Below are positions 13,269 through 41,700 of a stretch of 64,000 bases of DNA, one piece after another. Every line of letters starts with the position of its first letter. Within the stretch, counting starts at the first letter, position 1. The DNA is from Ectocarpus siliculosus (taxonomy: Eukaryota > Sar > Phaeophyceae > Ectocarpales > Ectocarpaceae). Where the stretch lies: positions 964,823-1,028,822 of the forward strand of contig FN649731.1 of assembly GCA_000310025.1 (NCBI GenBank), given 5' to 3'. Made by a program: the position numbers and the translations under genes. The notes under the pieces were generated by a model that was given only the letters and a program-made list of their open reading frames with translations, had not been told where the DNA came from and did no database searches.

Positions 13269-14196
13269 ATGCGTTCCGCCGGCTCACCTGAAAGTATCGG
13301 TTGTTGCCCCGCCTATCTTGTGACCCCGTGTAAACCTGTTGAAATAGATGGCTCGGTAGGTTACGACGGCGTGGTGATTTCTCCCAGCAACAGCATGTCG
13401 TCCATGGGGAGCGCCACCACGTTCGGTACCGGCGGACGGACTCCCGTTGGCGATAGGCCAGCCCTCAAGGCCCAGACCTCCTTTTTCACGCAGACCTTTG
13501 CGGAGCCACTGGAGGAGACCTCCACGGATGCCGGTGGTCGCGGAGGGCTGATGGCGAAGCATCTGGAGGAGATCGCGTCGGGGAAGGGGGCGGCCGCGGC
13601 GTCATCATCGACTGCCGAAGAGAAGAACACGCGCCGCTCGCTTATCGAAACCAAACCTCAAGGAGAAGGAACGGGCGGGGAAAAGTCACCGTTCCTGTCT
13701 CCGACGGCCCCGGCCGCCCCCGGTGCGGCCACGGGCGCGGCCTCGCCGTCCGCCGAGCCCGTCGCTTCCGCTCCTTCACCTCCCACGCCGGCCGCGGCGC
13801 CAGTGGCAGCGGCGGGGCGAGACGCGCAGGCAGAGCGGCCCATGTACGGCCGCTCTTCTTCTAAGCGTTGGCCGCCCAGGGCCCCAAAATCCGCCCCGTC
13901 AGTGCCCGCCGCCGAAGCGTCAGCTCCAGAGCCAACGCAGGTGAGAACGTTACCGGAGGCGCCGAGGGACGCAGTGTTGGACAGAACGGCTGCCATCACA
14001 ACGGTTTCAACAGCAGCGGCGTCCCCGTCTCAGCCTCGCGGTGAGAGAACGGCCAACCCGGCGGCGGCGGCTCCCCCGGTGGAGCAGGCCGAGCCATCGG
14101 CAAAGGTTCAGCCAACAGCAAGCACAGCGGACGAGGAGAAAGAGGAGACGGGAAGGGCGGCTCCACGAGACAGTTTCTTCGCCCCTGTTCCACAAG
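13269..14196 (+). other. Channel exon 1: disordered Ala/Pro N-terminus
   Basis: About 309 residues with no fold-like pattern, rich in Ala, Pro, Ser and Glu. In-frame ATGs lie at 13269 and 13395; the second sits in MSSMGSATTFG. The GC content is visibly higher than in the flanks. The exon ends at CACAAG|GTTTGT, phase 1. Confidence 0.7.
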
Positions 14197-17100
14197 GTTT
14201 GTGCGTGTTTTGTGCTTCTCTCTCTGTGTGTGTGTTCGTATGCAGGTTTCGGGCCGTGCTCTGATGAGGTAGGTGGGGGCACGCTCTTGCCCTCCTAAAT
14301 ATCAAAGCTTTGGTGATGTTGTGGATGCCTCAAGGAATGCATGGTGCTTGCGAAGTGCGGGCTGCCGGACTGTCTTGACGTCCTGAATGCCACGACTACC
14401 TGTATGGGCTGTCTGGCTCTCCACATTGCGTCTGTTTTCCTGCTACTGTACGAAAGGGTGCGAACGTTGTGCTGCTGTCCCATCGCTCCTGGACTCCTCC
14501 ATCCCTATACCCCCCTCGTAACAGTGCTTCTACTCGTCGCGCCCCTGGGCCTATGCCTCCAACGCCTTCTCTCTCTGTCTGTCTGTCTCTCTCTCTGTTT
14601 CTCTCTCGCTGTTTGTTTGTCTGGGTGTGTCTCTCTCTCTCTCTCGTTTCGCCCTCGGTTCGGTTTTGCTGAACAAACTTGGACTTATCACGAATACTTG
14701 CAGAGGAGAAGAAGGTGACCAGCAAAGAGAACAAGGGGGATTCAGTTCGACACTACACTCTGCCCCCAGGTCAGCTCGTTACGGCAGCAAACTCCCTGAA
14801 TACACAGCATTGCTCAGGCATTTCTCAAGAGGAGAATCGCATTTTACCGTGAAGGTGCTCCGGGTCGTTTTCTTTTCGTAGGGTTGTCTCCGAAACGCGA
14901 CCCAAAATTAACGTAAGTTGTTGGCCTCGCCGGGCATTCCCCGGCTTACTTTTCTTGGTGGCTCCAATCTACAGTACAAGTAGCTCTTCGCTCGCATTCG
15001 CGGTCTCGTCTTCATCGCCGTTCCGCTAGGATTCGGAGCCACGAAATCCCACTACTGCCCGTGCACGCCTCCATTAGCTAAAGGCGAGATGGGTTCAGCG
15101 GTACCTTCTGTCAAACGCACCGCTTCGTGCGCAAGTATTCTTACAGCGCAATGCGCCGACGAGCTTGGACATCCCGGCCTACCCATCTAGATGATGACTT
15201 TTGCCAGCTGGACCACCAAGGTGACCGGCCGGGCGTGTCCTCAACACAATATTCTTAATTCGCGTTGCATTCTCTTGTTCTGGCAACGTTGACCGTCGAC
15301 GTCTTTCGCCGTTGGTGCACGTCGCCGCCTACGCCCCCGCGCCTGTTTGGTCTCATGACCTCCAGAGATCAACTCGGTGCACGCAGCCGTCGAGAGCGGC
15401 GCCCCCGCGGCCGTGCCGGCGGTTCTCGTGCACATGGACCACGAGGCGGCCGTGTTTGAGCTGACGGCGAGAAACTGCAGCGGTCTGCGCGACGCCAGCA
15501 GCATCGGCACCGGCAACGTCTACGGCAACAGCAGTGGTGACGACGACGCGGAGCTAGAGACCGTCATCATGCTTGCCGCCCTCAGCGGAAACCTGGACAT
15601 GTTCCACACCGTTCTCGAGGCAATGAAAGAGAAGCTGCCGACAGCAAAACAGGTATAAGTATGTTGTTCAACGCCAACCAAGCGCGTTCTTGCACTGCAG
15701 GATTGTTGCAGCGGGCTGCAGCTGGAGTGCGTGTGCTTGTGCGTGTGTACGTGTGTTTGTTTACGCCAGGGTGCGGGAGTCATGCATGGTCTTGCCACGC
15801 GTTTGTACGGATGACAATGCGGAGTAGTGGGAGAAAGGCCTTGAAATACGGAATATTTCCACCCAATGTAGTATGGTGTGTCGATATACGTACTTGGTAA
15901 GGAAACTTGCTTGGAGATTGCCAAGACGAGTGGCTTCCGTTGGATGCGACTAGAATTTTCAAAACCCAAAATGCGTGCTTCACGTCGGTAGCCAGCCTGT
16001 TTGCTGCCGCAACGAATCAACAACAGCACCGAGTACTAACGGTGCTTGTTGCAAGCGAACTTGGCGCGTTCGGCTGCAATCTGCAACTCTCCCCTCCCCC
16101 AGCCGCGCCCCCCCTCGGTGTTTGCCATCGGGATTGGGTTTTCGTCGCTTGGCAACGACGTTGTAAAACCAGCCAATTCACTTCGTGAACTCGGCAACCA
16201 GGTTACCGTTTTTTTTTACCTTTTTTTTTTGGCGGTACCCATAATGGTGGTCGAGTAGATCATGTTGTGCGGGGTCGAGAACCCTCACTCCGCGCAACGG
16301 GGGATGGTCGCACCACGTTGTGTTAAATTGGCCAAGCATCCTCCTGGCAGTTACACAGTGCTTACAACTGTCTCAGGAAGTGAAAGCACCAGAACACAAA
16401 TATAGTCATCCGCAGCTGTCATCCGTACGCAAGGAAGTAAGCACAAGATGCCGAACACACTTAGCAGGATGCAGCGCACCCTTCATGCGACTCGCCGATA
16501 TACGTTACGGCGCTTCGCGCTTGGTGATGTGAGAGCCTGGTCCGGTGAGAACCCGGCGTGCTCCGTCCCGGCTTTGTAGAGATGCGAGGTCAATGGTCTA
16601 ACGACAACGGCATGCACGACTATGAGTACACCCTCCCCCGCCGCTGCTGCTGTGCCCAGTGGCCATTCAAACCGTAACTAACCCCACGCCCGCCGCGGTG
16701 CTGCGCACCGATTGCGTCATGGGCGCGCCTGCCCTCCTGACCGCGCGAAACAAAAGGTCGACGACATGATCGGGATGACAGATGAGGGGAGGTCCCTGGT
16801 GGTGGCGGCGGCGGAGGGGGGCAGCCTGGAGATCTTCGAGGAAGTCCTGGGCCTCCTGGGAGGGAAGGTGAGACGGATGATTTCACAGGTCTGGTGTCGA
16901 CGCCGCCGCTTGGCAGTGGTTTTTTCTATCCCCCGCAAGGGTCGGATTAATTCCGTGTATGTTATCCTCGCATTTTTTCCCCGTTTCGCTTGCTCTCCTC
17001 CCCTCCCTTAGTGTACCACCTGCCTCTGCTGAAAAAGACCCCTCCTGTGTTGAGCTGTTCTTCTGCCTCTACTGTTGTTTCGAACTCTCCTCCGGTTTAG

Positions 17101-20100
17101 CAACTCGTGAACCTTGTGCCCGGCTTCTTTTTTTTTTGGCTTTTTGTGGGGGTTTTTCGCTGGTAACCGGGGGGTCCATCCAAAAGGAGGCGGCGGCTGG
17201 GAACATGTCAACCCTGGAGGCAGGCTGTCTCATCAAGATGGCCGCGAGGAGCGGAAGCATCGAGGTTTTCAGCACCGTTCGGGACATGCTTGCCGAGGAC
17301 GGGAAGGTGAATAGATCATTTGCGACTACCGCGCCCGGTGCGCACGTTCATTCTCACGGCTTGGGTTGCAGACACCTTGAAACTGTGGGGCTACTCGTCA
17401 CGGCAGTGTGATGATTCAGTCCAGGAGTGGATCGGCTTCGATTGGACAAAAAACATTTTGTTGAAAGAACTCCTCTAATGGGTCAGGAATACACAAGTAA
17501 ATTTAGGCGTAGCAGGAAAGTTGGACAACAAGTATCGGTGCAATGAAACGTTGCGCAAGACGCATTCGGACACGGACGGGTTAAGCTCTCCGCAACTGAT
17601 TCTAGATGCCGGCCCGCGTCCTGCGTCCTCACACCCTTCCCTGTCTCTGCGCGGCACCGATCCCATCGCACGAGGAGTCAGCAAACCATAGCACCCGCCG
17701 TTCTCAGAAACTTTGCATTTCCTCTTGTTCCCCCTCTCTGTCCCTCCACGTTGTTACCCCGAAAGGGACCACTAACGAAAGCCCTATGTGTGCGGCGGTT
17801 ATACCTACTACCTCCCGGGGTTGGCCTCTTGCCGTCCACCTTTTCCCCCTACATTTATTTTTGTCGCCGTCAATGTGCTGATTCCTCGACGGGGCCCCTC
17901 TCACCCGCCCGGTTTATCCAGCTTTTCTGTCCCTCGTCTCTTCTGAAACACCCGTGCTATAGATTGTTCACTCGATGAAGGCGGCGGCGAACAGCGGAGC
18001 GCGTTGGGTGAACGTGTTCGTAGAGGCGGCGGGAAGTGGCAGCGGGGAGATGGTCGACGCCGTCGTGGCGGTCATGGTAGAGGTCCTCCCGAGGGATTCG
18101 GTGAGGAGCGAGCAACATCTCGCTTCTTCGGCATGCGTCTTGACTCCTTGATGTGTCCGACCCGTGAGAGTTTTATTCGTCGGGCGTCGCTTGTTCTTGT
18201 GGTCCTCCTCGACCCTACTGGTGTTGCCTTTGCTCTCTTGTTTGTGATGCAGAATCGCTTGGTCTTTTTGTTGTTTCGGGGTGTTACCGTAGGTTGCGTA
18301 AGATACCACACCCCCTGGACAGATTTTCAAAGCTCGACTACTCCACGACGAAGAGGATGCCGAAATCAAAGGATATGTTTTCGGAAAGCTCTTGATGGTT
18401 CCAACGCCGCCATTCTCGGCACCGTCACTGCTTTTCTTGCCGAGAAATTGAGCTTCGAAAATCGGTCGAAGGGATGTGATATATTACGCAACCTTCGGTA
18501 TTGTTGTCTTTGCTTTTGGCACTACACGAATGTTTGCTGTCTGTCGTCTGCTCGGATCAGGTGATGGACACAATCACAGCTTGCAAAGGGCCGTGGCGGA
18601 CGACGGCTCTCATGGCCGCCGCCGAGAGCAGGAGCACCGCATCCGTAAAAGCCGTCATGAACGCGATTTCCGCAATCGATGACAGCACCAGCGATGGCGA
18701 CGACGAGAACTTCGACAACATGGTGCGCCAAGAACGTTCTGTACCACGCGTCACCTTGTTTTTGACGGGACATTTTTGCGAAGAGTGCGGTTATGAGGTT
18801 GCGCGAAACCCTTTCCATGGCGGAAACTCGTCAGCGGCGTCCCGAGTTTTGTCTGCAAGAAGACGCAGTCTGAAAACCGTACGAGCGCTACTCTATACGC
18901 CACGCCTTTCGAAGGAGATCAGCAAGGGGAGTGTGTACTACGAACGTTCACTATTGTGATTGAGGTGCCGAACAGAAGGAACAATTTGTTCCGTACAGGG
19001 TACACGAGTTTTTTGCGGCAAGAGACTGTGTGAACCGAAACCGCACGCGACCCAACCATGCTATCTATACCCCTGAACGCGAGTCCCAGAGGACCGAACT
19101 GCAGCCATCGACAACCCGTCAGACCCCCTCCGGACAACGCATCCACCGTCACAGACAACCACAAGACAGCAACGATCGCAACCACGAACGATACAGATGA
19201 CACTACAACTGCAACATCGGTACCCTTTCGCCCCCCACCCACCCCATCGCGTTCAGCGCCTCACGGGAGAGCCTCCGAGCCCTTTCTCGGCGGACTCTCT
19301 CTCGCATTCTAAGGCTTCAGCCGGTCGTGGGGCGCCGACGATCAAGACAGACGGTCTTGGCCCGAACTGGGCCTCGTGGAAGGACAGGAGCCTCGCCGGG
19401 ACATTGAAACGCTGGGACTCCATAGCGAGCATGCGTTCGCCGCCCCCCCCGAACCCGCAGTATCTGGTGAGGCTGGAGTCGAATTTTGTTGGGTGGGTTT
19501 TTCCAGCTGTTTATTTTGACACAATGCCCGCTCTATCCCTGCCATGTGTGCAAGTTCTGATTCCCGGTGCGGTCATCCGGAAGCTTTTACACTGCATGCT
19601 GCAAATGTGTGCACTGTACTCATAGTCGTGCATGCCGTTGTCGTTAGACCATTGACCTCGCATCCCTACAAGGCCGGGACGGAGCACGCCGGGGTCTCAC
19701 CGGACCAGGCTCTCACATCACCTAGCGCGAAGCGCCGTAACGTATATGGGCGAGTCGCATGAAGGGTGCGCTCCATCCTGCTAAGGGTGTTCGGCATATT
19801 GTGCTTACTTCCTTGCGTACGGATGACAGCTGCGTATGACTTGCTTTATTTCTGGTGCTTTCACTTTCTGAGACAGTTGCAAGCACTGCTGTGTAACTGC
19901 CTCGAGGATGCTTGACCAATTTAACATAACGTGGTGCGATCATCCCCCTTTTGCGGAGGGAGGGTTCTCGACCCCGCACAACATGATCTACTCGACCACC
20001 AATTTGGTTACCGCAAAAAAAAACAGAGGTAAAAAAAACAAAAAACGGTAACCTGGTTGCCAAGTTCACGAAGTGAATTGGCTTCTTTTACAACGTCGTT

Positions 20101-23100
20101 GCCAAACGACGAAAACCCAATCCCGATGGCAAACACTGAGAGGAGGGCTTGTATTATAACGCCGTTGCCAAGCGACGAAAACCCAACCCCGATGGCAAAC
20201 ACCGGGGGGGGGCGGGGGAGGGGGGGGGGGAGGAGGTTTATTCGACAACATGCTCACACGCGGAACGGGTAGGGCTACAGGAACTGGGTGCAACCATGCA
20301 CAGGGAACAGGCAGCAACTCACGAGACTCGCCCTGATTTTCTCCCTCCTCGCCTGTTGCTGCCGTGTTGCTCGCTACCGCGAAACGAACCCCACCCCGGA
20401 ACACACGAACGAGTGGCAACAGAGGGAGAGAATGATCGTGGCGAAGAACGTGCGGGGCCACACTGCGCTAACTTGTGCCGCCAACAGCGGGGTCCTCGAC
20501 AACGTCGTGATCGTCTCGGAAGCGATGGGAAAGTTCCTGTCTGCTTACCAGGCACGTTGTTGTACACAGCGGTCTGCGAGGATACGCTGAGTCATGTTGT
20601 ACGGTAGCGCTTCGTTTGATAGGTTGCGGGGTGCATTCGTTGGCGGCGACGGTCGTCGCAAAGAACTTTTTTTTGCGCTCGATCAGTTGACGGAAGCCCG
20701 GGAAAGTAAGGGGCACGTCGGTGGCATCGTCACGGCTGCCGCTGGTGGTGTCCCAGTGGCGGTCCTCGTTGTTGGGCTTTCGGTTGTTGAGTAGGACAAG
20801 AAGAGGCATCGTGGGGCAAATTTGGTCGAAACGATGCCCTCTTCCCCACAGCAACCGGACACATACGATCTATTCTGTCATGGCGTGAAGATGTAGTGCA
20901 CACCGATTGCAAGACTTCGACCGGCTTGAAACGTAGGAGCTCGGGGGCGAGTTGGCGTGGTTGACTTGGAAATGGTCGAAAGCGGGACAAAAATGTTCCG
21001 TCACGAGACGAGCGATGCAGCTATCAAGAGCGGAGGCCGCACGATCACCCAAGAACATATCGTAGAGAAAAGGCAACAAACGAACGTTTTGGGGTGCTCA
21101 CTTGTGCTGGTCGTTACAGATGACGGACGCCTTGAGCTCATCGCTCTCCACGGGCTGCAACAACCTCTCGCTTCCGGTAAGTGAAGAACAACATGGAACC
21201 CAAAGCGTTTTATTGAGTCTGCATGAGGCACTTTCCTCGCAGGCGGGCGGGTGGCGTGTTCGCGTCCATCCCGGTCGGAAGAAGTATCAGTACGGAAAGA
21301 CCAAAAAAACTGTATTTGGCGTTGTGTTTGCGCTCTTTGCGGCGGTGGTGACCCCAGAGTTTAACGGCTTTTTTTCTCCTGCAGGGCTGCACACGCGACG
21401 ACTCGGATTCCATATTGATGCAGCTACCTTTTATGTATACTCTGTGTGCTTCTCGGTTGCATGTAAAGTTGCTGCTATTGGCCAGTCCGTCCGTCCATCC
21501 GCCGGTCGTGCTGGCGCGTTGTGCGACATGAGGTATTCTATAGCGGCTGCTTTCGATAATAGATGACACACATAGCATAGCCAGCTCCATTGTGCGTGGT
21601 GTTACCAAAGAACACCACGATACATTCACCAACCAATCAATGGTGTCGGCCTCGTTATGTTTGAGGATCTCCACCCTGTGGCATCAACTGAAACAGTACA
21701 CAACGAGCCCATTCTCGGAAGTGGAACAATTCTTTGTTTGGTCTACTGTTCGCTTCTTCGTTCCGCTCAGTGTTTCGCTGCCCGCTCGTTCGTTATTTTT
21801 TGGGATTGTTCTACTGTAGGTGGAAGACGCGAGGTTGAGCGTGCTGGCCTACCTTCTTCAGCACGGCGCCAAGCCCACCAACAAGGGGCTCCTCCGACTC
21901 TGCAACTTGGTCAAGTTTCCCCGACTGAAGGTGCTGTATCCTGATTCATTCATGCCATTTCCCGAAGCGTCTGTTTTGACTTTGAAAAGGCTGACCTCCA
22001 CGCTCTTCTCGCGCAATGTCGATTGCTAGAGATACCGAAGTGTTTGCACAACGCGTGGGACTAACCCGTGATATTCATTGAGCCCCTCGAAATCGAAAAC
22101 TTGTTTGTCCTTTCTCACGCCCTTTACGTCAAGAGCGAAAAACTGAAAGCTTGGGATGATACAGACCGAGTGTTGCTTTTCAAATTGTCACTGAGTTCAG
22201 CTTAATGCGCTGGACTGTTTTTGACCGTACTTCCTTGTTGACCATCAAGGGACGCGGTATACGAGACTAGGAAGTATTCAGGAGCAGGGTTCAAATCCTT
22301 CTCCTTGTAGTCGTACAACCGTTGTGCGTTGATCCCGAAACGAGAATACACTCGACCTTTCTGTCATCTTGGTCGACAGGAGCAGACCGGTCGTAGAAGC
22401 GAAGCCACCAGCGGCATGAGGAAGACATTGGGTTGTCTCGGACTGCCCCCCCCCGGTTGTATATTCTCATTCTTATTGGTGCTCTGCGTGTGGGAGGCTG
22501 GACAAGAAATAAATATCTCTTGCTAGTTGACCTCACTCCCTCAGTCAAGTCACCCGTGCATCGGGACCTTGGCACATGTTTGGCTTCATGTCGACCAAGA
22601 AGCACAATGTCCCAATCCCGAGCATCGTGGACGTGAGCCTTACGAATATTTTCCCGTCGAACCAACGGCACAAGCACCGTGCCGTCTTCTCTAACGACGT
22701 GCTGTTGACGAAACACATACAACAGATGTCCTCCTTCCTACTAACGATGAGTATTCTTACGTGAAATAATCGCAACAGGAAGGTGTATCACCCTTGTTCA
22801 GCCTCCCCTGGGTGTGCGTTTGTTCCGACCAGCGGGACTAAACCCTCCCTGCCCGAACGAACATTTTCTTGTGCCCCGTCTTGGGCGAGTAGCCCTCCCT
22901 TGGTGCTCGGTGTTGCTTCTCACTACCCAGCTACACCTTGCTGGTGCTAGTAGTGCTGCTGTTGTGGTTGCGGCCGACAATTGTTTTATCGAGCGGCAAT
23001 GCCGGGGCTTCCTGTCGCCGTTGAATCGCTGGCACTCCGCCACTCCTTGTTTTCGGTCGGGGCACTTTGTGTCCCTCCCGTTTTTTTCGTGGTTCCTCTA

Positions 23101-26100
23101 GTCTATCTGGGCTCCGAAAAACAACAGTTTCATGGTTTTATCGACCTGAATCCTTCGCGTGCCCTACCTTCACCGCCGATCCCCAGGAAAGCCTGTTGGG
23201 AGCCATCTCCTCGGCGGACAACCCGTTCATCCCTGGCATGAACCTGTCCGTCGCATGCACGATGGCGACCAGGCGTGCCATGGAAGGAGAAAAACGCCGT
23301 CTCGCTTCGATGCAGGTACCGCTACAGGATGGGCAACCACCCTGCTCGATCGCGCGTGTGTGGAGCAAAAGTCCTCGGTCAACGAGAGCAATTACGGTAG
23401 AGAGGGCCGCCACCATCGCGAAGACGACGGTTTGCTATGACGACCTACTTCATCATGCATCGATGCACGGAAATACCGCGCGTTCTCCAATATTCCGCCG
23501 CTAGAGGTCACGAAGCGCGTCGGCGTATATCTATGCATGTTTGCGCAGTTTCAAGTCTGGTGTGTGCTTGCTCTCCCGCCTGGGCCTTACTCATAGGAAC
23601 AGCATAGAGTGCCACGCCACGTGCATGTCTGCCGCCAAAGTTCCATCACCCCACCGGGCGACCGAAAAATTCACCCCAGGCTGCCATTGACGAGCTTCTG
23701 CTCGAGGTTCTAGAGCACATGCCTCAGACAGTCAAGGGGTTCAAAGGCGAGATGAGAGACTGCTCCGCCATCTTCGAGCCCGAGACCGTTATCTCCCGAT
23801 TCCATGGCTATCAGGTGCGTGCGTGCGCTTGTGCGTTGAGGTCGTGGTTTGTTCTTCTTTGACTTAAGAAACACGCACACTCAACTCCGGGTCATGACTG
23901 TTGGACTTTGTAGCTGCATTATTTGTTTTCAGTATCGAAGACAGAAGCGACCGCCATGCATTCACCTAGGCCGGCCGAGCATTGAGTAGTCAGTGTGCGC
24001 GTGTGCTTCGTTTTGATCGGTCTCTGCCGCGAGCGTTTGTGGGTGTTTGCGCAGTCCCGCGAATGTAACTGTAGGGCGTATCGTTTCTGTTTTGGCGCCC
24101 TCTTGCTTGTTCCTGTGCAAGTAATACCGTAGAAAATACCTTCCCAAGAGGTGAAACGAACATGAAGACGGCCTAGGCACATGGATATTCATAAGTCTGG
24201 TAGTAGCTGGTAGTAGCTGGGGTTTGTTGTTGTTGTTGTTGTTGTTGTTGTTGCTCTCGTTGTTGTGTTTTCGCCCCGACGCATTCTTTAACTCTCTGGT
24301 GCCACGGGGGCTGTCAACCAGGTTCTGTTCACCTGGTGCACACAATATAATAAGTAGACCGATGAAAATGAGGATATCCATTCGATGTGGAGGCACCTTC
24401 ACCGAAACTTTGTTCCGGCAGATGCGACCACGTTCCTCTCTCAACCGCCTGCCCAAAAATAACGAAACGAAACCATTTACCACAGGGGCCCTTGCACGTC
24501 GTGCTGAGCAAGAGGCAGCAGATGGAGACGTATTGCACGATCCCGTTGGTCCTAGACTTCATGAGCAGGAAGTTCACGAAGGGACTGCCTAGCCTGAGGG
24601 ACACGGAGGGGGTGCTGCTCAACAACACGAGCTTCACGGAGCCCGGGCAGACCCTGTACGGTGAGAGAGGGAGACCAAGAGGACGCGGCAAGGGGAGAAA
24701 AAAGGGCAGGAAGACAACCAAGCGGTTTCGTGTCTCACGTTTCCAACCCGCGGCATTTGTTGTGAAACCTAGAATTTCTGATGAAGACCCGTTTGATCTA
24801 GCATCAGCAGTGGTTTCTCATCGAGAGATTCGCCGAACAACTTGTGCGGCAACCATCGCCACGGAACAACCGATCCCAGGACGCACAAGAACGGTGGTCG
24901 CCGTTATGGTCAGCCCTGTTTCGTTGTTTTCTTTGGTTCCTTTCGCTTCGAATGAGGGGATTTCTCGGCTCGGTCACGTCGGGGAGCGTGGTTGGTAGCT
25001 ATGGGGGACGCGAGGGGATGCAAGGCACCGAAGATCCAAGAGGTACTTGTTCAATCACCGGGGGGTGAAGGTGGTGGTTCCGTACAACTGGCTGATGTCC
25101 TTGGACACAAGCACAAACAAAGGTGGCCAAGCGGACCAGTTGTGCGTTCGACGCTCCTACAGCTAGTAGTGTGCACGGAATCAGGGCAGTCGACTCGGCC
25201 AGTCACTGGGCACGTGCGTTGCCGTTATTTAAGCGATATTTTCTGTAAGAGCGTTCTGCTGGGAAGGCGCACGCGCTGGGACGCGATGAATGCTGATCGG
25301 GATACGGCTACGTGATTTACCTCTACAGTAATCTAGTCTCGATTACACATTCGGCCGTCCGCACGGTTAATTGTGGGGTTGCGTTGTACTTTCTCGATAC
25401 GTATATTGTTTCTGGGAAGTAGGGTCCTACTCCGCTGCAACAGCATTTCCTCCACAATCTCAGTGATTGTCATATCGTTTGTGCACATATTTACCGTAAG
25501 ATTGCGGGCGCACGCGCAAGTGTGTGATCGATCGAATGTCAAAAATCCACGCTCCACAACCCGGAGGGTGTGCGCAACCCGACCGGCACGTGGTAGGAAA
25601 CCTCTCGACGAGATCTTTCCGAACCCTCCCTTTTTCGGCATTGTCAGCCCCTTGGGTTGTTGCTTTGGGACAATCGAGCTATGATCGTCGACCGCACACA
25701 CACACGCGTGTGTGCGTTCGCCCGCGTACTTTGAACAGTACCCGTGTGAACAAACGTACGTCTGCTATTGACAAGCGTCGATTCTGTCGCACGTCCAGGG
25801 GATGGTTTGCTCGCGGAGGGCAGGGTTTTCTTCTTCGGAATGGCTCTGCAGAGAAGCTACGCGGGGGGGACGCTGTCGAGTATCACCTACTTTCCGGGAG
25901 CAAGGTTTATCATTGCCGGGCTTCTGTCCAGGCCGGGCAGCTACTACAAGGTACATCGAGATGGCCGTGTGCAGAGACACCTGCCCAGAGGTCGCGTTGT
26001 ACGTCGCGACGCGAGAGTGCTTCTCGCGGTTGCGAATACCTGGATACAATCATTCGCAAGTCTGCAGAATACAGAATACATAAGCTATTCATACCTGGTA

Positions 26101-29100
26101 GGCAATATTTCGTTGTTGTTGTGTGGGTGGTGTATATTACAGACCGTCAGATTTTTTTCGTATGTTTTTTTTTTCGTGTGGTCGCCTCTGGATTGTTTCC
26201 ACTACAGATTCCTCGCGATTGTTGGGGGAAATCTTCGTGTCTTTCGTTTTCTTTGAATCTTACAGCAGCATTCCCTTGTCTGGGCTAGCTTGCGACCATT
26301 GGAAAATCGTTTCTTTGCCTTGAGTGGCAGGGGGGAAGATGTACGTGATATTAGCTCCTAATGTAAAGTTAACGACAACAACGCCCTTCGCGAGGAAAAG
26401 TAATAAAAATAGTAGTTCAACGACTACTTCAACCGTGTCTACATTCATGCATACATATGACACACACTGCTTCATATTGAGAAGAGAAAGCCGGGCACAC
26501 CCGGCACACCAGGGGCTTGCACACACACAAACCAGATCATGGTCTTTAGAAGCATCATTGTGCTTTCAACCCCGCCGAGACTGACTTGTTTTCATTGGTC
26601 AGACGGTTAGCGTGGTTGATACTAAAAGTAAGGCCACATACACACCTTCTTCCCCTGCGCGGTCCGGAATCGTGCCGAAACCTCGCTCGGCGAACACACT
26701 CTGCATTTGGTAGGAGTTGGAAAGGCACGCAATACCCTCGCCCCCGTTGTCCACGAGCCGTTTCCCTCCTGCTCGGGCGTTCATTGCTCGAACCCGCGCT
26801 TGGCATGGTAAAAACGTAATGTTTTTCTTCCGTGCGTCCACAGCGACGCCAAGGGTAACGGAGTGGCTGTGATGCGCATTCCTTGTTGCATGCCCCCCTC
26901 ACCCCTTCTGTCGTCCCCGCAAAGGCACCGGCCCACCACAAACGTTGTGTGTATCATGCGAACGCTTGCGTGTACAGGTTCCTGCCCTTCGAATGTGCTT
27001 GGACCTCGTGACGTACATCTTGATGATGATCATCTTTGGGGGGTTTGTCATTCTGCACGATGCGGGCGACACCTTCGACTGGATGGAGATCGTCTTCACC
27101 ATGTACATTTTCGTGAGGGCACTGGTCTTGTTGTTGTTGTTGTTGCTGTTGCTGTTGTTGTTGTGGTGGTGGTGGTGGTAGTCGGTATTGTTCTTGTTGA
27201 TGGTCTTGCTGGGCGTATTGCCTCAGCTATTGGCTGGGAACGCCCGACTCCTCTCGTGCATGAAGTACTTTGTTTGTCCTTCGAAAATTGGCGTCAATCA
27301 CCTCTCCCACGAAAGCAAGAAAACCCACACACCGCGCGTCAGGGAGGCATCCTGACCGAGTTCCGGGAGATTCTTGACGACCCCTGGGAATACATGCGGG
27401 ACCAGTGGAACCTGCTTGACGTGGCCTCCCTCACCTTGCTCCTTGGCGGGGTGATCCAGCGAATGTACGGACAAGTCGACGACCAGTCCTCCCGGGCCTT
27501 GTATGCCCTCAGCGCGCCCCTGGCGTTCGCCAGGATCCTGTTCTTCGTGCAGATCCTTCCCTCGCAAGGGCCGATAATACAGGTGCGTTGTAATAACTCT
27601 TGCTCTGACAACGGTCATGATGACGCGGTAGGCTCCGTGATGCTGTGAGTGTCAACTGCTCTTGATGGACGGCCGATTCCCGGGTCCCACAAGGCCCACG
27701 TCTGGTAGTACAGGTCAGCTCCAGGGTTTGAGTTGGACCAAGTCGTGGTCTCCATGTCAGCCGTGCAGGTTGACCGACACCCGTGAGGGCACAAAATGCA
27801 ATCTTTTTGCTATCGGGACACACACAGCATCCAAAAGCGTGTTTTCGGCTTCGATCCTCGGTCGGGAAAGTGGCCGTGTTGCGTGTCGCGGCCAAATTGA
27901 CCCGAGGGCGGCTGGTCGGAAAAATGTTTTTCATGAGCCTCAGCGACAGTGGAGAGACATCACGATTTGTCAAGTCTAGCGGGTGTCACCTGCAGCCTTC
28001 CACCCATCACCCGCTCCCCCTCTTCCTTGGCAGGTAATGTTTTCGATGACGGGCCTTCTGGCCAAGTTCGGGATGATCATGCTGCTTGTGATGCTGGGCT
28101 TCGTGACGTCCTTCTACAGTCTGTACAAAGAAACCACCACCTATGGCGTGGTGAGACAGCGACACAAACAAGAGGCGCAGACAGAATAGGCGCCAAGCGT
28201 AGGAAGAAAGGGGTCGGAAGACTGTAGTAGGTGTTGGCGAAGAGAGGGGTGTGGTGCAGCAACGAAAACATGGCCGACTTCCTGCAAGAAGTGCGACCAG
28301 CCGGTGCGATTTACACGAGAGCTACGAAAAGTACTCGTAGACACGGAAGCACTGCACCGTCTTCTCCTGGTTCCGGCGGCGTCTTCGAATAGAACCGCCG
28401 GCTCGGGAAAAGAAGAAACCATCAGGAAACTCGCGAAACGACATTCCGGTTTTGTGGCTGCCAAGTGTCTCGAACATGTGTCTACTATACTACATACAAT
28501 CAAGACGCGTGAACGTACTGCAGTGTGAGCCGCTTCTTGCGACAGAAGTGTCAATAAGGCATGCGTTTCGTTTCGATTTGCATGAGGGTTATGATGATGC
28601 TCGAAAACACGCTTCTGTTGTCCTCATCGGAACGTGGACGCTGTTCTTCTGCAGGTATGGAAGGCCATCTTCAGGGCGACGCTGGGCGAAACGGACTACT
28701 TCGACGACTTCTCGGGGACCACGTTCGACGGCGTGGCCACCGCCCTCCTGGTCGTCTACCTCGTTCTGCTTACCATCATGATGCTCAACCTCCTTGTGGC
28801 GGTGCTGTCGACGGCACACGCCAAGGTCGACGCGGACGCCGGCCTCGAGTACAAGGTTAGCAGCCGCCGTCATCGTTTTCCTGCAGCAACTTTTTCGGGC
28901 TTCGAGCACAAGCGTGCGCCCGCGCCCGCGCGTGCTTCTTTGGTTCGCGTCGACGGCGGTGCTTACAGCGACTTACCAGCGGTATCGGCGGGTGACATAA
29001 AAATTTTCCCCGGAGGAGAGAGACGACCAATTTTCGAAGAATGAACCACGCCCAGGATGTATGGTCCGACGCTCTCGACAATCCCGTAACAAAAAAGCAC

Positions 29101-31462
29101 GCCGGAGATTCACACCTGAGCATTCGCCCCTAACCAAGGGAGTCAGGTGGATCTTTCCTCCGCCGTGGAGCACTACGCAGACCTCAAAGGCTCTTCCCGC
29201 GATTTTGCGAGGTCTCTCGCGGGCTTTACCTAATCGCGAAACAACAGGCGTTGTCACGAATGTTGTCAATCACCAGCATAACCATTGGCGGCGAGCAAGC
29301 CGTTCTATCTCCTTAGACATGCCATCCTTTCACCGCCAATTTTCCTGCCTGCACTGTGCCAAGCACGAGGCCGAATGCCAGGCGTCATACTTTTTTCCCT
29401 GCCTACCAGCCAACGAACGTTGGAAGAGGTGGTTGCGTTTGAATGTATTCATACGTCGTTCCTCTCCCTCTGTTCGCCATGCATCTTCCGTACCCTCTTT
29501 TCCAACAATGCTATTGAAAATCCCGGTCTAAAAGTGTGGACGTTTCGTTTGGCCTTTTACATGACATGCATGCGTTGGTCAGCATCAATCACGCTCCCTC
29601 GCTCACGCACACCTCATCACTTTTCACCGTCTCACCTCTCACAACGGCGATTCAGGAACACGTCGTCGACAACCATGTTGCAGGTCTAGATGTTGCGATT
29701 TGTCGTCCCTGGGCCTGTCATCTTCGGTCGTGAGTCCCGAGTCCAAACATTCCCACGTGATCTCAATGCACACTCTAGCACCGTATGTCCGCTGACAGTG
29801 CTTTTTGAGGTTCGCAGGGTTTCTTTTGTTGTGTTTCCATTGGTTCGAAACCAAAGAAATATAAATGGTTTCCTAGACCTCTGGGAGAAGACTCATTTTG
29901 GCGGCAATCGATAACACTCTTGTTCGATCGCACGACCTCGCCGCATCTTGAATCTGTCAGGTGACCAAGGCTAGGCTGATCCAACACTACGTAAACGTGG
30001 TCGAGATCGACCGCCTGCCGCCGCCCCTCAACCTGTGTCAGTGGATCTTCGCCCTCCCCTTCATGGTGCTAGACTTGTGCTCCCGCTCCTCCCGGCGCCC
30101 CTCAACGGCACGCACCAACTCCGCCGCCGGCTCTGCTTCCAACAGCAGCAGCAGCAGCAGCAGCAGCAACGAAGAAACAAAGAGAGGCCGCAGCCATTTC
30201 GATGTCGCCCGTGGCTGCTTCGGCCGGCTGGCGTTCTGGGCTATGCTCGGCCCCATCGCCGTCCTTGCCGGCTGGGTGCTGTGGATGATCTCCGTCGTAA
30301 AGGCACCGGTCGTGGTCTGGCAAACCTCGGGGGACAAGAGTCGCGGCGGAAGGATCGCCAGGATGCTGCTCGTGATCTTCGCTTGTGCGGTGGGAGCACC
30401 CTTCTGGCACCTGGTCATGTGGGTGCGAGGCGGCGTGGCTGGCGTGAGGAGGACCATGCGTGCTCTGGGCTGTTGCTGCTGCTGCGGGAGGGGGCGCGGG
30501 GGCGGGGCGAAGCGGGTCGGCGGAAGGACGCCGACCGCATCGATGACGGTGCGTGGCTTTCCCGCGACGACCGTGGCCGAAGGAGCAGAACATGATATGG
30601 AGAAGGTGGTGCCGATCGTGCTGCAGGAGGCAGATGGGGGTGAGTGGTGCCAGATTTCCCGTGGGTCGCGATTATTGACGATCAAAACAACACAGCCCGC
30701 CGCCCCCAACCTAGGTACAGTAGGCATCCTTTTGAACAAACGACTTTAAACGAAAAGCAGCGCGGAGACAAAAAATGCCCAAGAACTACCACGCACCACC
30801 CGCGTTAGACCCGTATTTTCCCGTAGTAAGGTAGTTGTCCATCAAATCCTATCGGCCCCACCACAACAACTCCCCGCTCTTGCCTTCCTGGAATCGCTCA
30901 TGCGTGATCGTACCCCTCATGTACGACGCTTTCCTCAGCTCTGGCCACCAGCGAGCTCCAGATCTTTCTCGACGACCCCATGAGCGACCCGGCCGTGCGC
31001 CGAGACGAGGAGACGAGGGCAACTACGGTGGAGCACATCAAGCTGCTCAGAAACCGCCTGGAGGCCACGACCAAGGAGCACATGGACGGGCTGCAGGCCT
31101 ACCTCCTCAAGACCGCGGGAGATATCTCCCGCCAGCTGGAGGAGTCGGGTGCGGGGGGGCGTGGGTCCCATGGCGGTGGTGGTGGTGGTGCTGCCGCCGC
31201 CGCCCGGGGTCGGGTAGGTGCCGCACCCCAAGACGAAGATGACGACGAAAATCGCGACGTGGGCGGATGGGAGGCCGGGAGCCGGGGCGCGGAGGAGCTG
31301 AGGCAGATCGTTGGCGCGAGGTTTAGCGAGCTCGACGCAAGCCTCGAAGCAAGGGAGGGCGCGCTACAAGAGAGGATGGGGACCATGATTGACGAGCGAT
31401 TGGGCGCCCTGACGAAGAAGCTAGACCTTGTCCTCAGCGCGCGGGAAACCGGGGCGCCGTAG
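13269..31462 (+). CDS. Ankyrin-repeat TRP-like cation channel, 21 exons
   Basis: Predicted plasma- or endo-membrane cation channel. Exons: 13269-14196, 14704-14769, 15366-15652, 16757-16867, 17187-17306, 17963-18100, 18561-18722, 19314-19466, 20423-20551, 21120-21176, 21820-21930, 23187-23315, 23680-23814, 24486-24660, 25799-25950, 26978-27112, 27343-27582, 28034-28150, 28655-28855, 29961-30639, 30939-31462. They total 4749 nt (1582 residues) and every phase agrees. Residues 1-330 are Ala/Pro-rich and disordered. About 331-755 form divergent ankyrin-like repeats. S1-S6 span 960-1170, with the TRP-type DQWNLLD before S3 and a pore segment around LGETDYFDDF. A charged coiled-coil-like tail ends the protein. 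The start could instead be ATG 13395. Exon 8's acceptor is the weakest. TRP family membership is clear; the subfamily and gating stimulus are unknown. Confidence 0.85.
14570..14645. repeat. CTGT/CT microsatellite
   Basis: Simple repeat in intron 1 of the channel gene, just upstream of exon 2. Confidence 0.8.
16119..16630 (+). repeat. C-run-bounded repeat, copy 1
   Basis: Begins TGTTTGCCATCGGG and ends GACTATGAGTACA. C-rich tracts lie on both sides (16091-16115 and 16631-16640). It contains a T-rich centre (TTTTTTTTTACCTTTTTTTTTT) and AAGTAAGCACAAGATGCCG. It lies in the intron between channel exons 3 and 4. No coding sequence was found. Confidence 0.8.
19615..20201 (-). repeat. C-run-bounded repeat, copy 2
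   Basis: Reverse orientation to copy 1. It runs from TGTACTCATAGTCGTGCATG at 19615 to GATGGCAAACA at 20201, where a long G-rich run follows (20203-20235). The last ~50 bp (CGTTGCCAA[G/A]CGACGAAAACCCAA..GATGGCAAACA) are duplicated in tandem at about 20094-20135 and 20163-20201. It lies in the channel intron between exons 8 and 9. Confidence 0.8.
24222..24255. repeat. TTG/GTT microsatellite
   Basis: About 11 GTT units in the channel intron upstream of exon 14. Confidence 0.85.
26978..28855 (+). other. Channel exons 16-19: S1-S6 and pore
   Basis: Exon 16 holds S1 (LVTYILMMIIFGGFVIL) and the start of S2. Exon 17 holds EYMRDQWNLLDVASLTLLLG (S2-S3 link and S3) and the S4-like LAFARILFFVQILP. Exon 18 holds S5 (GMIMLLVMLGFVTSFYSLY). 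Exon 19 holds the pore (IFRATLGETDYFDDF) and S6 ending in MMLNLLVAVLSTAHAKV. The order, spacing and WN-x-x-D motif are those of TRP channels. S4 has a single Arg, so strong voltage sensing is unlikely. Confidence 0.9.
27125..27182. repeat. TTG/TGG simple repeat
   Basis: Low-complexity TTG grading into TGG, directly after channel exon 16. Confidence 0.8.
29961..31462 (+). other. Channel exons 20-21: long C-terminal region
   Basis: After S6 the chain passes a poly-Ser tract. It then has two more hydrophobic stretches (AFWAMLGPIAVLAGWVLWMI; ARMLLVIFACAVGAPFWHLV), a run of five Cys (LGCCCCCG) and a Gly/Arg-rich linker. The last exon is a charged, helical, coiled-coil-like region with a Gly/Ala-rich insert, ending in GAP and a stop at 31460-31462. 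Splice: GATGGGG|GTGAGT, phase 1. Confidence 0.75.
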
Positions 31463-38778: not shown

Positions 38779-41700
38779 CGCTCTCTGTCTCTATATCTGC
38801 CTCGCTGTGAGCGCATCCCCTGTGTAAGTCTCTCTTTGCTCTCCTTCTTTCATTCCTTTTTTCTCTCTCCCCGGAAAAAGTTGAAGAACCATGCGGCCAC
38901 CGCGCGGAACCACAACGATCAATTACGATTGCCTCGAGAGCACCTGCTGCCTGGTTGAGTGCGGGGCTATATGTTGATTTACCAATATTGTTCTTCTTCG
39001 TGCTCCTTTCCCCCCCGGTGTCTCGCAAGCGTGAGGAGTAAGTAGCAAATAATGTGACCATGATCATTGTCAGCATTACACTGCGCTTTCGGCTTTGCAC
39101 GTTGGTGTCCGGTAACCGATGAACGTAGGTAACAACATGAAAGAACGAAGAAAAGAAGGGAATAAACACAAGACGCCAGAGAAAAAGGAAAAAAATGTAA
39201 ACAAAGCAAGGCTCCTCTCGGGAGTTTTCCCCGCGGTAGTTTTCCCGCGGGGGATTCCATGGGAACGATAATTGGTAACGTTATCGTGATAATTCGCAGT
39301 TGCCGTGCCCGGTCCAAACGTAAAAAAAGAAAGGAAAATAAGAAAACAAGAAAAAAAAAAACGGAAGAAGAATAGCTCCCACGTGGATTTGAACCACGGA
39401 TGTTGTGCTTACCAAGCACACGCTTTCCCGCGGGGAATTCCATGGGACGGTAATTGGTAGCGTTACCGTGATAATTCGCAGTTACCGTGCCCGGTCCAAA
39501 CATTAAAAAAAAAGGAGAAAAGAAGGCAAAAAATAGAAAAACGGAAGAAATTTAGCTCCCACGCGGATTTGAACCACGGACCTTGTGCTTACTAAGCACA
39601 CGCTCTAACCAACTGAGCTATAGGAGCTGTTCCTTGCTCTAGGACCTGATGTGAGGCAAATTTTTGAGTTTCTGAAAACAGAAATAGCTCATCCCGTGAA
39701 TGTACGTGTACCAAGATTCCAAAACACCCTATTTTTCTGCGATTGGAGGCTGCTCCTCTTCGGTCACGATTGAATGAACTCATGAACAACTCGGGTCGAG
39801 AAATCTCAACCCCTACGTTCGCGGCATGCCCACCAGTTCGTAGCCCCCCGCCACCGTCGTCAACCGGTGGTAGCCAGAGGACCTTTGATTTGCCGAGGAA
39901 CGAAGTACATCGCTGAGGCTGTTTCTAAAGCTGTCTCTCTTAATGTATTGGGGGGTGGGGGGTGTCCTTTTCTTACCCCAAGAACACTGTTAAGCTTCAT
40001 AGAATACGTGCAGCAAAATGGCAAATCCATAACGCCCATTTTCTTACTTAAAGCCCGAATTTCCAAGATGACCGGGCGGCGAGTAAGAAATGGGCCCATT
40101 TTCTAAACGGATCGACTCATATTTTCGCGTTAGGAAAATTGGGGGAGGTCAGTCAAACCCCAGTCGTGCCAGAACGAGGAACTGCACCGTCTGCTGCCCA
40201 ACAGAGGCCCAAAATACACATTGTGGGGTCATACACAAACCCTCTGAGGAATCGAAAAGTCGGGGCGTTCTGCGTCTTGTTCACCTGACGCGAGCCGAAG
40301 ACGTGCACTACAGCATTCTGTGACCCATCAAAACTTGTGTCGAGGGACCGAAAGACGGTCGCTCGGATCTGCAGATTTTTCTCTTGCACATGCTTCTCGG
40401 AGAGAAAGAGCGAAACTAAATTAAAAAAAAAATGAAAAAAATAAAACACGCAACAGCCCGACTAAAAAAGCACTTTTGAAAAAATGAAAAATCAACTTCT
40501 CCAACACCCAGCACCGGAAAATTAGTCTTGTTTTTTTGGGGGTTATATGCAGCCGAGTCTCCATTTCGATGGTCAAAGTCAGACACGCCTGCCTGTCACT
40601 CGGTTCGATCATGCGTGGGGGGTTGGATGACCCCACCCAGCAACCAACCACAGCAGTGCCTGGCTCTTACCTACCTTGTCTACCGAGAAGTAGAGTGTCG
40701 CCTGGGTCTGCTCCCCTCGGCACATCCCTCTCGACTTGAGCAGGGGCTCCAGGCAGCCGGAAGACATGAAGACAAGGTCATCTTTCTTGTCATCGGGGCA
40801 CGAGTCGATCACCGCCGCAACCTCTTCCTCCGGCACGCACACGTAGATCGGGAAGTTCTGCAGCATCGCGGGTTCTGCCGCCGCGGCAAACGTTCGATAT
40901 CAATGCAGGCATGGGGGGACAAACGACGGGAAGCATGATTCGCCGGGTAAGGGAAGAGAGGACGAAAAACGTAAGGTGCAAAAAATTGAAATCGAGATTT
41001 CCTATTGAGTGAAGTGAATCTCAGTAATAGCACCGAACGCTTTAAAAACCACCTCACCCAACGATTATCTTCGCGAGGAGAATTTTCAGCAGGTGCGTGT
41101 GTCTGTCGATGTGTGTGGACGGGGGCGCTTCTTCTGAGAACATAAAACAACGCCACATAAAAACACAACAGTGCATGCCTTGGGGTGCTTGTTAACGAGA
41201 GGGCGGCGAAGGGGAATCACACGCGAAAAAAAAAAAAACGGACGCGACACCACCATGGCAAAACAGTCGGACGATAGCACCGCCAGTGTTAGGGCCCACA
41301 CAGACGGCGAATCATTTTCGAACGCAAGCAGCTGATGCAGTTTTTTCTGTCTCTTCCGTTCCTGGAAGCCCAAGGTGGCACAGCTGGTAAAATCTAGGAC
41401 CACGCAGCCACAGCTTTTCGTGTGCTTAATTCAGTTTGGCCGGAGGGTGTACTATTCTTGTTTCTTTTTTTTAAGTGTGTCACTGTAAAACCTATAAATT
41501 CTACGGTTTGGTCGAAGGGTCCATTTGTGTCGATTATGGTATGCCTTATAGCAAAACCGACGTACTCTGCATTGCATAGGTATCAGTACAGCATTTTCAA
41601 ACTCACAAAACACAACGGCGATAATGCGCTCAAGTCTGGCCATACAATTTCATACCCTGGTCAAGCATAGAATGGATATACTGGCCATACAAAATCCTTT

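What the first reader, a model, noticed from the sequence alone, without database searches (positions are those of the whole stretch)
13269..31462. Large ankyrin-TRP channel reconstructed from 21 phase-consistent exons
Seen: 21 exons sum to 4749 nt with no phase conflict, six membrane spans, a DQWNLLD motif and NLLVAVLS after S6. Known: ankyrin-bearing TRP channels occur in animals and some protists. Inference: an algal TRP channel with an unusual, diverged repeat domain and a ~330-residue disordered N-terminus, possibly mechanosensory or flagellar.
Basis: partly seen in the sequence, partly recalled or inferred. Interest (0 to 1): 0.75.

Follow-up and report, generated by a model that had tools for sequence, protein, structure and literature searches.

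The report
Brown-algal ankyrin TRP channel gene
This is a gene for a sensory-type ion channel of the TRP superfamily in what looks like a brown alga, one of about seventeen related loci there; its unusual points are a diverged ankyrin domain, carried in relatives on same-sized exons, and a conserved hydrophobic helix pair behind the pore.

Summary
The 21-exon model is reproduced exactly: 4749 nt, 1582 aa, no phase conflict. All 21 exons have a positive codon score, and paralogues read across 10 of its 20 junctions. It encodes a TRP-superfamily channel: Ion_trans 1e-13, Ank_2 5e-8, PDB hits to Inactive, TRPC6/3, TRPM2 and a TRP-like algal channel. No subfamily can be assigned. The genome, a brown alga's by inference, holds 17 loci matching the channel core, in line with a published brown-algal TRP expansion (PMC11085791).

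Unusual: one 43-aa ankyrin-like repeat per 129-nt phase-0 exon in paralogues (13 of 34 repeat hits under strict splice criteria, all in paralogues; next length 5). Repeat-exon number differs between close paralogues, with one decayed copy. A hydrophobic pair follows the TRP box in 9 of 9 members tested.

Weak points: exons 8 and 10 have no homology. The 309-aa N-terminal exon is coding-like but has no relative, so its link to the channel is unproven. Nothing supports a mechanosensory or flagellar role. Only one exon could be modelled, at modest confidence.

The parts
13269..14196 (+). exon 1: ATG, 309-aa low-complexity (Ala/Pro/Ser/Glu-rich) N-terminus
   Evidence: in-frame codon score +0.05, above all 84 intron stretches; no relative in the genome; membership in the channel transcript inferred
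14704..14769 (+). exon 2, short linker exon
   Evidence: splice sites and phase; codon score +0.07; no homologue
15366..15652 (+). exon 3: first (cap) ankyrin-like exon
   Evidence: repeat HMM E 1.5e-9, not a seed; Pfam Ank_2 best stretch spans exons 3-4; paralogue first-repeat exons resemble it by eye
16757..16867 (+). exon 4: ankyrin-like repeat, phase 0-0
   Evidence: Pfam Ank_2 best stretch; was a seed of the repeat HMM, so its E 5e-8 is not independent
17187..17306 (+). exon 5: ankyrin-like repeat, phase 0-0
   Evidence: seed of the repeat HMM (E 2.9e-8, not independent); codon score +0.36
17963..18100 (+). exon 6: degenerate repeat, phase 0-0
   Evidence: repeat HMM E 0.057 only; codon score +0.32
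18561..18722 (+). exon 7: ankyrin-like repeat, phase 0-0
   Evidence: seed of the repeat HMM (E 7.7e-10, not independent); codon score +0.25
19314..19466 (+). exon 8: unsupported exon, phase 0-0
   Evidence: no repeat HMM match at E<1; another frame scores better; skipping it keeps the frame
20423..20551 (+). exon 9: ankyrin-like repeat, exactly 129 nt, GC donor
   Evidence: seed of the repeat HMM (E 4.4e-9, not independent); same length and phase as paralogue repeat exons
21120..21176 (+). exon 10: unsupported 57-nt exon
   Evidence: no homology seen; another frame scores better
21820..21930 (+). exon 11: start of conserved linker domain
   Evidence: paralogue linker exons align through aa 720-978
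23187..23315 (+). exon 12: linker domain
23680..23814 (+). exon 13: linker domain
24486..24660 (+). exon 14: linker domain
25799..25950 (+). exon 15: end of linker and pre-S1 segment
   Evidence: FPGA(R/Q)F...YY.VPA.RM recurs in paralogues; the name pre-S1 elbow is inferred
26978..27112 (+). exon 16: S1 and start of S2
   Evidence: S1 by hydropathy; S2 by TRPC6 alignment
27343..27582 (+). exon 17: rest of S2, S3 (DQWNLLD) and S4
   Evidence: flanking introns at aa 996 and 1076 shared with paralogues
28034..28150 (+). exon 18: S5
28655..28855 (+). exon 19: pore helix, filter region and S6 (NLLVAVLS)
28679..28690 (+). TLGE, putative selectivity-filter motif (MLGE/MLGD in paralogues)
   Evidence: acidic residue after LG in 9 of 9
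29961..30639 (+). exon 20: TRP helix, TRP box 2, post-TRP segment and extra hydrophobic pair
30015..30032 (+). LPPPLN, TRP-box-2-like motif
   Evidence: LPxP(F/L)N in 9 of 9; motif name recalled
30228..30284 (+). first helix of extra C-terminal hydrophobic pair (aa 1272-1290)
   Evidence: family-mean hydropathy 1.96 over 19 residues; helix aa 1254-1305 in a single-sequence model
30363..30419 (+). second helix of extra pair (aa 1317-1335)
   Evidence: family-mean hydropathy 2.03 over 19 residues; helix aa 1308-1359 in a single-sequence model
30939..31462 (+). exon 21: conserved LQ.FL.DP..D..VR.DE..TTVEHIK.LRNRLE block, helical-looking tail and stop
   Evidence: 53% identity to paralogue C43 over 53 aa; alignment; the last ~105 aa have no aligned relative and rest on the open frame

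Best explanation
The locus encodes a brown-algal TRP-superfamily subunit. SHOWN by sequence: an ankyrin-type repeat domain, a conserved ~230-residue linker, S1-S6 with an L-G-acidic pore motif, a TRP helix with basic residues at positions 2 and 5, a TRP-box-2-like LPPPLN, a further hydrophobic pair, and a conserved C-terminal block. INFERRED: subunits form a tetrameric, Ca2+-permeable, weakly selective cation channel. The cytosolic ankyrin domain, linker and C-terminal helices hold the subunits together and receive the stimulus (ligand, partner protein or lipid). The TRP helix, probably sensing PIP2 through its basic residues, passes the movement to the S6 gate. The post-TRP segment and the hydrophobic pair sit in or under the membrane, as the elbows of crTRP1 do. 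The likely output is a Ca2+ signal; the stimulus is unknown.
For: Ion_trans 1e-13 and Ank_2 5e-8, both above curated cut-offs. PDB matches: Inactive 5e-14, TRPC6 3.5e-13, TRPC3 1.3e-9, TRPM2 chanzyme 1.1e-8, YVC1 5.5e-8, 6pw4 'TRP-like ion channel' 1.1e-7. The 9-member core profile hits 196 PDB sequences at E<=1e-6; the 60 shown are named as TRP-type channels except one called 'MKIAA1616 protein'. L-G-acidic in 9 of 9; basic at TRP-helix position 2 in 9 of 9 and position 5 in 8 of 9; LPxP(F/L)N in 9 of 9. In crTRP1 positions 2 and 5 are basic and proposed to bind PIP2, and position 1 is Phe instead of Trp (PMC6744473, passages); here position 1 is Tyr, and Trp in 0 of 9. Paralogues support the junctions from aa 754 to 1408. 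A single-sequence AlphaFold model of exon 20 shows two long helices (aa 1254-1305 and 1308-1359), pLDDT 72-80 over aa 1273-1342.
Against: No transcript, no model of the whole channel, no electrophysiology. The exon-20 model is weak overall (mean pLDDT 56.3, pTM 0.35) and does not show membrane position. PKD_channel and YVC1_C also match paralogue L043 above cut-off, so the subfamily is open. Only one window repeat exon keeps the 129-nt unit. Exons 8 and 10 are unsupported.
Confidence: 0.88

Rival explanations
1. Two transcription units: the 309-aa low-complexity exon 1 (with or without exon 2) belongs to a separate gene or an alternative first exon, and the channel starts at or near the first ankyrin exon.
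For: Exons 1-2 have no relative in the genome at E<=0.01. Paralogue C43 has a Met directly at its first ankyrin exon (MESAICSAV). The exon 1 donor looks weak (CAAG|GTTTGT). The exon 1 ORF could run on to a stop at 14264.
Against: Phase fits through exons 1-3. Paralogue L042 has a ~370-aa low-complexity ORF just upstream of its ankyrin/channel exon.
Confidence: 0.35
2. A polycystin or voltage-gated channel rather than a group-1 TRP.
For: PKD_channel matches paralogue L043 above cut-off (4.3e-7, 30 vs 22.4 bits). Ion_trans is shared by other six-helix cation channels (recalled).
Against: PKD_channel is below its cut-off for the window protein (12.8 vs 22.4 bits). None of the 60 PDB hits shown (of 196) for the core profile is named a polycystin. 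S4 carries a single Arg (8 of 9), not a voltage-sensor array. TRP helix and TRP-box-2-like motif are present. No large S1-S2 insertion is visible in the family alignment.
Confidence: 0.04
3. A decaying paralogue whose repeat domain is degenerating.
For: Only exon 9 of the window repeat exons keeps the 129-nt length, and it has a GC donor. Exons 6, 8 and 10 are weak. Paralogue L039 is visibly broken (two in-frame stops).
Against: No in-frame stop before the end in 4749 nt. Positive codon scores in 21 of 21 exons. Pore, TRP helix and C-terminal block are intact.
Confidence: 0.08

Closest known systems
crTRP1 of Chlamydomonas reinhardtii (PMC6744473, passages; PDB 6pw4/6pw5 by recall)
   Same: Ankyrin repeats, linker domain, six helices, TRP helix with basic residues at positions 2 and 5 and no Trp at position 1, post-TRP hydrophobic segment, C-terminal helices; 6pw4 matches at 1.1e-7 and 7.5e-14 by profile.
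   Different: 43-aa repeat unit in the family; an additional hydrophobic pair after the post-TRP segment, not mentioned in the passages on crTRP1; only distant sequence similarity.
TRPC3/TRPC6
   Same: Co-linear S2-S6, TRP helix and LPxPFN motif in the alignment; ankyrin-linker-channel order (stated for TRPC vs crTRP1 in PMC6744473).
   Different: EYKVTKAR instead of EWKFARAK; different pore sequence; extra hydrophobic pair.
Drosophila Inactive/Nanchung (TRPV-type by recall)
   Same: Inactive is the best PDB hit (5e-14), including the pore TLGE/TLGD.
   Different: The match covers the S4 region to the TRP helix; TRPV membership not resolved.
Brown-algal TRP expansion (PMC11085791) and copper-activated TRP activity in Ectocarpus (PMC5907779)
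   Same: Same lineage; many TRP genes per genome (51 in Sargassum fusiforme; passages).
   Different: The word ankyrin occurs in neither main text. The Ectocarpus passages read are pharmacology and name no channel gene.
Brown-algal ROCO LRR exons (PMC11378527, passages)
   Same: One protein repeat per exon of fixed length and constant phase, with exon turnover.
   Different: 72-bp phase-2 LRR exons in GTPases there; 129-nt phase-0 ankyrin-like exons in ion channels here. Alternative splicing is reported there, not tested here.

Membership tests
TRP superfamily | six-helix Ion_trans core with pore between S5 and S6 | tested here: met
   Ion_trans 1e-13, above cut-off; five of six spans by hydropathy, S2 by TRPC6 alignment
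TRP superfamily | TRP helix/box after S6 and LPPPF-type box 2 | tested here: met
   EYKVTKAR aligned to EWKFARAK and LPPPLN to LPVPFN of TRPC6; conserved in the family, but Trp of box 1 in 0 of 9
TRP superfamily | tetrameric cation conductance | not testable with these tools
   needs expression and recording
TRP superfamily | TRP fold in a structure model | not tested
ankyrin repeat proteins | significant ankyrin profile match | tested here: met
   Ank_2 5e-8 for the window protein; 1.2e-10 and 1.9e-10 for concatenations of 5 of 10 C43 repeats and 5 of 5 C3b repeats; single 43-aa units alone mostly fail (1 of 16 matches Ank_2, E 0.04)
ankyrin repeat proteins | canonical unit of about 33 residues | tested here: not met
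   the paralogue unit is 43 aa against a 33-position Pfam Ank model; a weak alignment (E 0.028) to 5ma4 shows about 10 extra residues between units
TRPA / TRPN | best match to TRPA1/NOMPC and a very long ankyrin array | tested here: inconclusive
   not among the 60 of 196 PDB hits shown; at most 10 repeat hits in any family locus, a lower bound; full ranking not displayed
TRPV / TRPC / TRPM / TRPY | clear nearest subfamily | tested here: inconclusive
   Inactive 84.3, YVC1 74.5, TRPC6 68, TRPM1 57.8, 6pw4 55.3 bits; the tree with TRPC6 and Inactive has very long branches
[quoted passage not shown]
   hydrophobic segment behind the TRP box, low-confidence helix there; position in the membrane unknown
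exon-shuffled brown-algal repeat genes (ROCO-like) | one repeat per exon of constant length and phase | tested here: met
   paralogues: exactly 129 nt in phase 0-0 in 13 of 34 repeat hits (29 paralogue, 5 window) under strict splice criteria, next length 5. Not universal: 21 of 34 have no such exon, and in the window only exon 9 (GC donor) has it
exon-shuffled brown-algal repeat genes (ROCO-like) | diversifying selection | tested here: not met
   dN/dS 0.27-0.84 in 8 exon pairs, none above 1
exon-shuffled brown-algal repeat genes (ROCO-like) | alternative splicing of repeat exons | not testable with these tools
   no transcript data

The most novel reading that the evidence does not exclude
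Brown-algal TRP channels carry a variable-length ankyrin sensor built from interchangeable 129-nt, phase-0, one-repeat exons. These exons are gained, lost and reordered between close paralogues and, because any may be skipped without a frame shift, may be spliced into a repertoire of channels with different sensors, as proposed for brown-algal ROCO and NB-ARC-TPR immune receptors. A conserved extra hydrophobic hairpin behind the TRP box marks the same clade. The window gene is an old member whose repeat exons have drifted from the standard length.
Probability: 0.3. Interest if true: 0.72.

Novelty: new variant of a known kind. Interest (0 to 1): 0.45.

Why it matters
Brown algae evolved complex multicellularity on their own and are known to have many TRP genes, but the passages I read link no brown-algal channel sequence to a function. 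The locus gives a concrete gene model and a family of 17 loci. It also gives a testable idea that exon-coded repeats, described there for candidate immune receptors, also build the sensor of an ion channel. The extra hydrophobic pair after the TRP box is a specific, testable structural departure.

Tried and rejected
Rejected: a 31-nt exon at 14882-14912 (usable splice sites, breaks the frame). A viral relative: a scan of viral contigs with the core alignment gave 63 pattern matches, none confirmed. Subfamily assignment by tree: branches to TRPC6 and Inactive of 3.33 and 2.84 changes per column, 8 of 14 inner branches open, so not used. The repeat exons being spread over other gene types: five concatenated repeats at E<=1 gave 14 matches; 11 lie in TRP loci of this family, and three, at C5, C25:3726k and C14 (E 1.5e-4, 0.0085, 0.63), were not followed. 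Flagellar proteomics: one paper search, no paper. Reports of this repeat-exon arrangement in TRP channels: searches; I saw none in the titles and abstract starts listed. This covers open-licence papers only. PMC11526382 and PMC4929541, which hold the search words, were not read. A fold search was not run, because the one model is of low confidence.

Papers: passages were seen of PMC5907779, PMC11085791, PMC4820453, PMC6744473 and PMC11378527; no paper was read whole; the others were seen only in search listings.

Dropped or limited: of the 16 other loci, 14 were fetched (the two on C4 were not). Upstream sequence was added for 4 of these 14, so repeat counts for the rest are lower bounds. Two of the 18 exons with a 129-nt option (C11_2764 and L051_344, with poor acceptors) were left out of alignment A1 (16 rows). 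Window exons 4, 5, 7 and 9 were seeds of the repeat HMM, as were paralogue repeats, so their E-values are not independent. The hydrophobic pair was tested in 9 members; L047-L052 were not tested. GC3 for exon 21 is invalid (out of frame in that run) and not used. Intron positions from the spliced alignments are reliable only where identity is high (aa 720 on). L039, used in several dN/dS pairs, is a likely pseudogene, which raises those ratios.
Full report
WHAT WAS CHECKED. The 21 exons from 13269 to 31462 give 4749 nt and 1582 aa plus stop. Sixteen introns are in phase 0 and four in phase 1; one has a GC donor (exon 9). GC at third codon positions is 0.67-0.93 in exons 1-20 against 0.527 GC in the introns (exon 21 was out of frame in that run). 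In exon 1 GC3 (0.67) does not exceed GC12 (0.66). A codon score trained on 5711 paralogue codons is positive in frame for 21 of 21 exons and best in frame for 19 of 21; exons 8 and 10 fail. For exon 1 the score is low (+0.05) but above all 84 overlapping intron stretches of its size (maximum -0.12).

CHANCE. Open frames alone prove little for small exons: random AG..GT segments of 57 and 66 nt are open in a given frame in 59% and 54% of cases. Homology is the stronger test.

PARALOGUES. The window lies in a 189-Mb genome. A search with the channel core of one paralogue gave 43 matches at E<=1, which group by position into 17 loci including this one, each with a best E of 1.3e-4 or better. Fourteen of the other 16 were fetched. 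On the paralogues it finds the intron after aa 1076 at the same position and phase in 11 of 14 and the one after aa 996 in 8 of 14; those after 951 and 1115 are shared with L046, and 797 and 1115 with L051. Several paralogues are intron-poor: single exons read straight across window junctions 754, 797, 842, 900 and 951 (L039, L041), 996 (L045), and 1076, 1115, 1182 and 1408 (L042). Exon 21 is backed by 53% identity over 53 aa to C43. So the chain from exon 11 to about aa 1476 is well supported; the last ~105 aa rest on the open frame.

WHAT IT IS. Pfam gives Ion_trans 1e-13 and Ank_2 5e-8. PDB sequence search gives Inactive, TRPC6, TRPC3, TRPM2 chanzyme, YVC1 and 6pw4 (crTRP1 by recall); the 9-member core profile repeats this with better scores (60 of 196 hits shown). 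Hydropathy shows S1, S3, S4, S5 and S6; S2 rests on the TRPC6 alignment. The core alignment shows an LG-acidic pore motif in 9 of 9, a TRP helix with basic residues at position 2 (9 of 9) and position 5 (8 of 9; Ile in L044), no Trp at position 1 (0 of 9), and LPxP(F/L)N in 9 of 9. In crTRP1 position 1 is also not Trp, and the basic residues at 2 and 5 have been proposed to bind PIP2 (PMC6744473, passages). No subfamily wins clearly: paralogue L043 also passes the cut-offs of PKD_channel and YVC1_C, and the tree with two outside sequences is not resolved.

THE REPEAT DOMAIN. A repeat HMM seeded with window and paralogue exons gave 34 hits at E<1e-4, 29 in paralogues and 5 in the window. Requiring C/T before AG, at least half pyrimidines upstream, a GT donor and at least five donor matches, an exon of exactly 129 nt in phase 0-0 is available in 13 of 34 hits; the next length, 138, in 5. 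With looser criteria, and GC allowed in the window only, 18 of 44 hits at E<1 have a 129-nt option. Sixteen of these aligned as 43-aa units, consensus xxxxLxAKDxxGxTxLxAAxxSxxxxxFEAVLxxAxxxLxxxQ. Single units are hardly recognised by Pfam (Ank_2 in 1 of 16, E 0.04); concatenated units score as ankyrin (1.2e-10 for 5 of 10 C43 repeats, 1.9e-10 for the five of C3b). A weak PDB alignment (E 0.028) shows about 10 extra residues between units. In the window gene only exon 9 has 129 nt, and only if its GC donor is accepted; the family length makes that donor more believable.

TURNOVER OF REPEAT EXONS. Two close paralogues on C3 (89% identical over 243 nt of one channel exon) differ in repeats: one has five 129-nt exons, the other three plus a decayed copy with a stop. 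The best match of a repeat is not always at the corresponding place; C3a_4459 is closest to C3a_5518 (65%), then to C3b_2573 (60%). Similarity between copies reaches only some 30 nt into the introns. dN/dS of 8 overlapping repeat pairs is 0.27-0.84, against 0.13-0.36 in S1-S6, 0.16-0.32 in the linker and 0.20-0.44 in the C-terminus. That is mostly faster, without a sign of positive selection; 43 codons are few, and C3a (L039) is a likely pseudogene. This resembles the one-repeat-per-exon build of brown-algal ROCO genes (PMC11378527, passages). Alternative splicing, reported there, is not tested here.

C-TERMINUS. After S6 the family keeps a hydrophobic segment directly behind LPxP(F/L)N (aa 1207-1225) and then a hydrophobic pair (aa 1272-1290 and 1317-1335; family means 1.54, 1.96, 2.03). 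In 9 of 9 members both helices of the pair reach at least 1.8 over 17 residues. A single-sequence AlphaFold model of exon 20 (226 aa, mean pLDDT 56.3, pTM 0.35) has two long helices, aa 1254-1305 and 1308-1359, forming the best part of the model (pLDDT 72-80 over aa 1273-1342), and a low-confidence helix at aa 1204-1226. This fits a helical hairpin but does not place it in the membrane. crTRP1 is described with a post-TRP elbow, then a rib helix and coiled coil (PMC6744473); the extra pair would lie between these. A search with the C-terminal module of C43 at E<=0.1 hit eight loci, C43 itself included, each one also found with the channel core. Pfam has no family above cut-off for it.

N-TERMINUS. 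Exons 1-2 have no relative in the genome. L042 has a low-complexity ORF of ~370 aa in the same place; C43 has a start codon right at its first ankyrin exon. A 330-residue disordered tail on this channel therefore stays plausible, not shown.

ORGANISM. The EsV-1-7 cysteine motif (PF19114) has at least 150 matches (150 of 880 candidates scored) and rings in 0 of 14 control genomes. Its link with brown algae is recalled. This and the TRP expansion point to a brown alga; the species is not known to me.

FUNCTION. A Ca2+-permeable sensory channel is the natural reading. In Ectocarpus siliculosus a mixture of animal-TRP inhibitors blocks later copper-induced Ca2+ rises (PMC5907779, passages), but that is pharmacology without gene identity. 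Nothing here supports a flagellar or mechanosensory role over others.

VERDICT. The gene belongs to an expanded brown-algal TRP family, with two features that I found in none of the passages read: 129-nt one-repeat ankyrin exons (in its paralogues, and once in the gene) and a hydrophobic helix pair behind the TRP box.

Noticed in passing
16091-16630 and 19615-20229: Two copies, in opposite orientation, of a high-copy interspersed repeat inside introns 3 and 8 of the TRP gene (arms up to 227 nt, 96% complementary). A 372-nt piece has 40 near-full matches (itself included) and one partial one, with 40 of 2529 candidates scored; a copy lies in an intron of paralogue L040.
   Followed up: partly
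18285-18501: MITE-like repeat of about 217 bp in intron 6 of 20 (18101-18560) with terminal inverted repeats TACCG(T/A)AGGTTGCGTA; relatives in L045, L046 and C43.
   Followed up: partly
L039 (G000:C3:1008500-1017500): Paralogous TRP locus with two in-frame stops and one decayed repeat exon: a likely pseudogene.
   Followed up: partly
62916-63617 (+): MULE transposase domain, E 2.9e-13.
   Followed up: no
59263-59853 (-): Mitochondrial carrier domain, E 7.8e-10.
   Followed up: no
39554-39627 (-): tRNA gene by Rfam.
   Followed up: no
L047, L048, L049 (contig C25): Divergent TRP loci clustered within about 60 kb, 75-84% identical to each other over the main shared pieces and grouped in the tree; C-terminal anatomy not examined.
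   Followed up: no
L042 2538-3199: Internal direct repeat (76% over 334 nt) inside the low-complexity N-terminal ORF of paralogue L042.
   Followed up: no
G000:C5:2235527-2235973 (-): Weak match to the concatenated repeats outside the TRP loci found (E 1.5e-4); possibly an ankyrin array without a channel.
   Followed up: no
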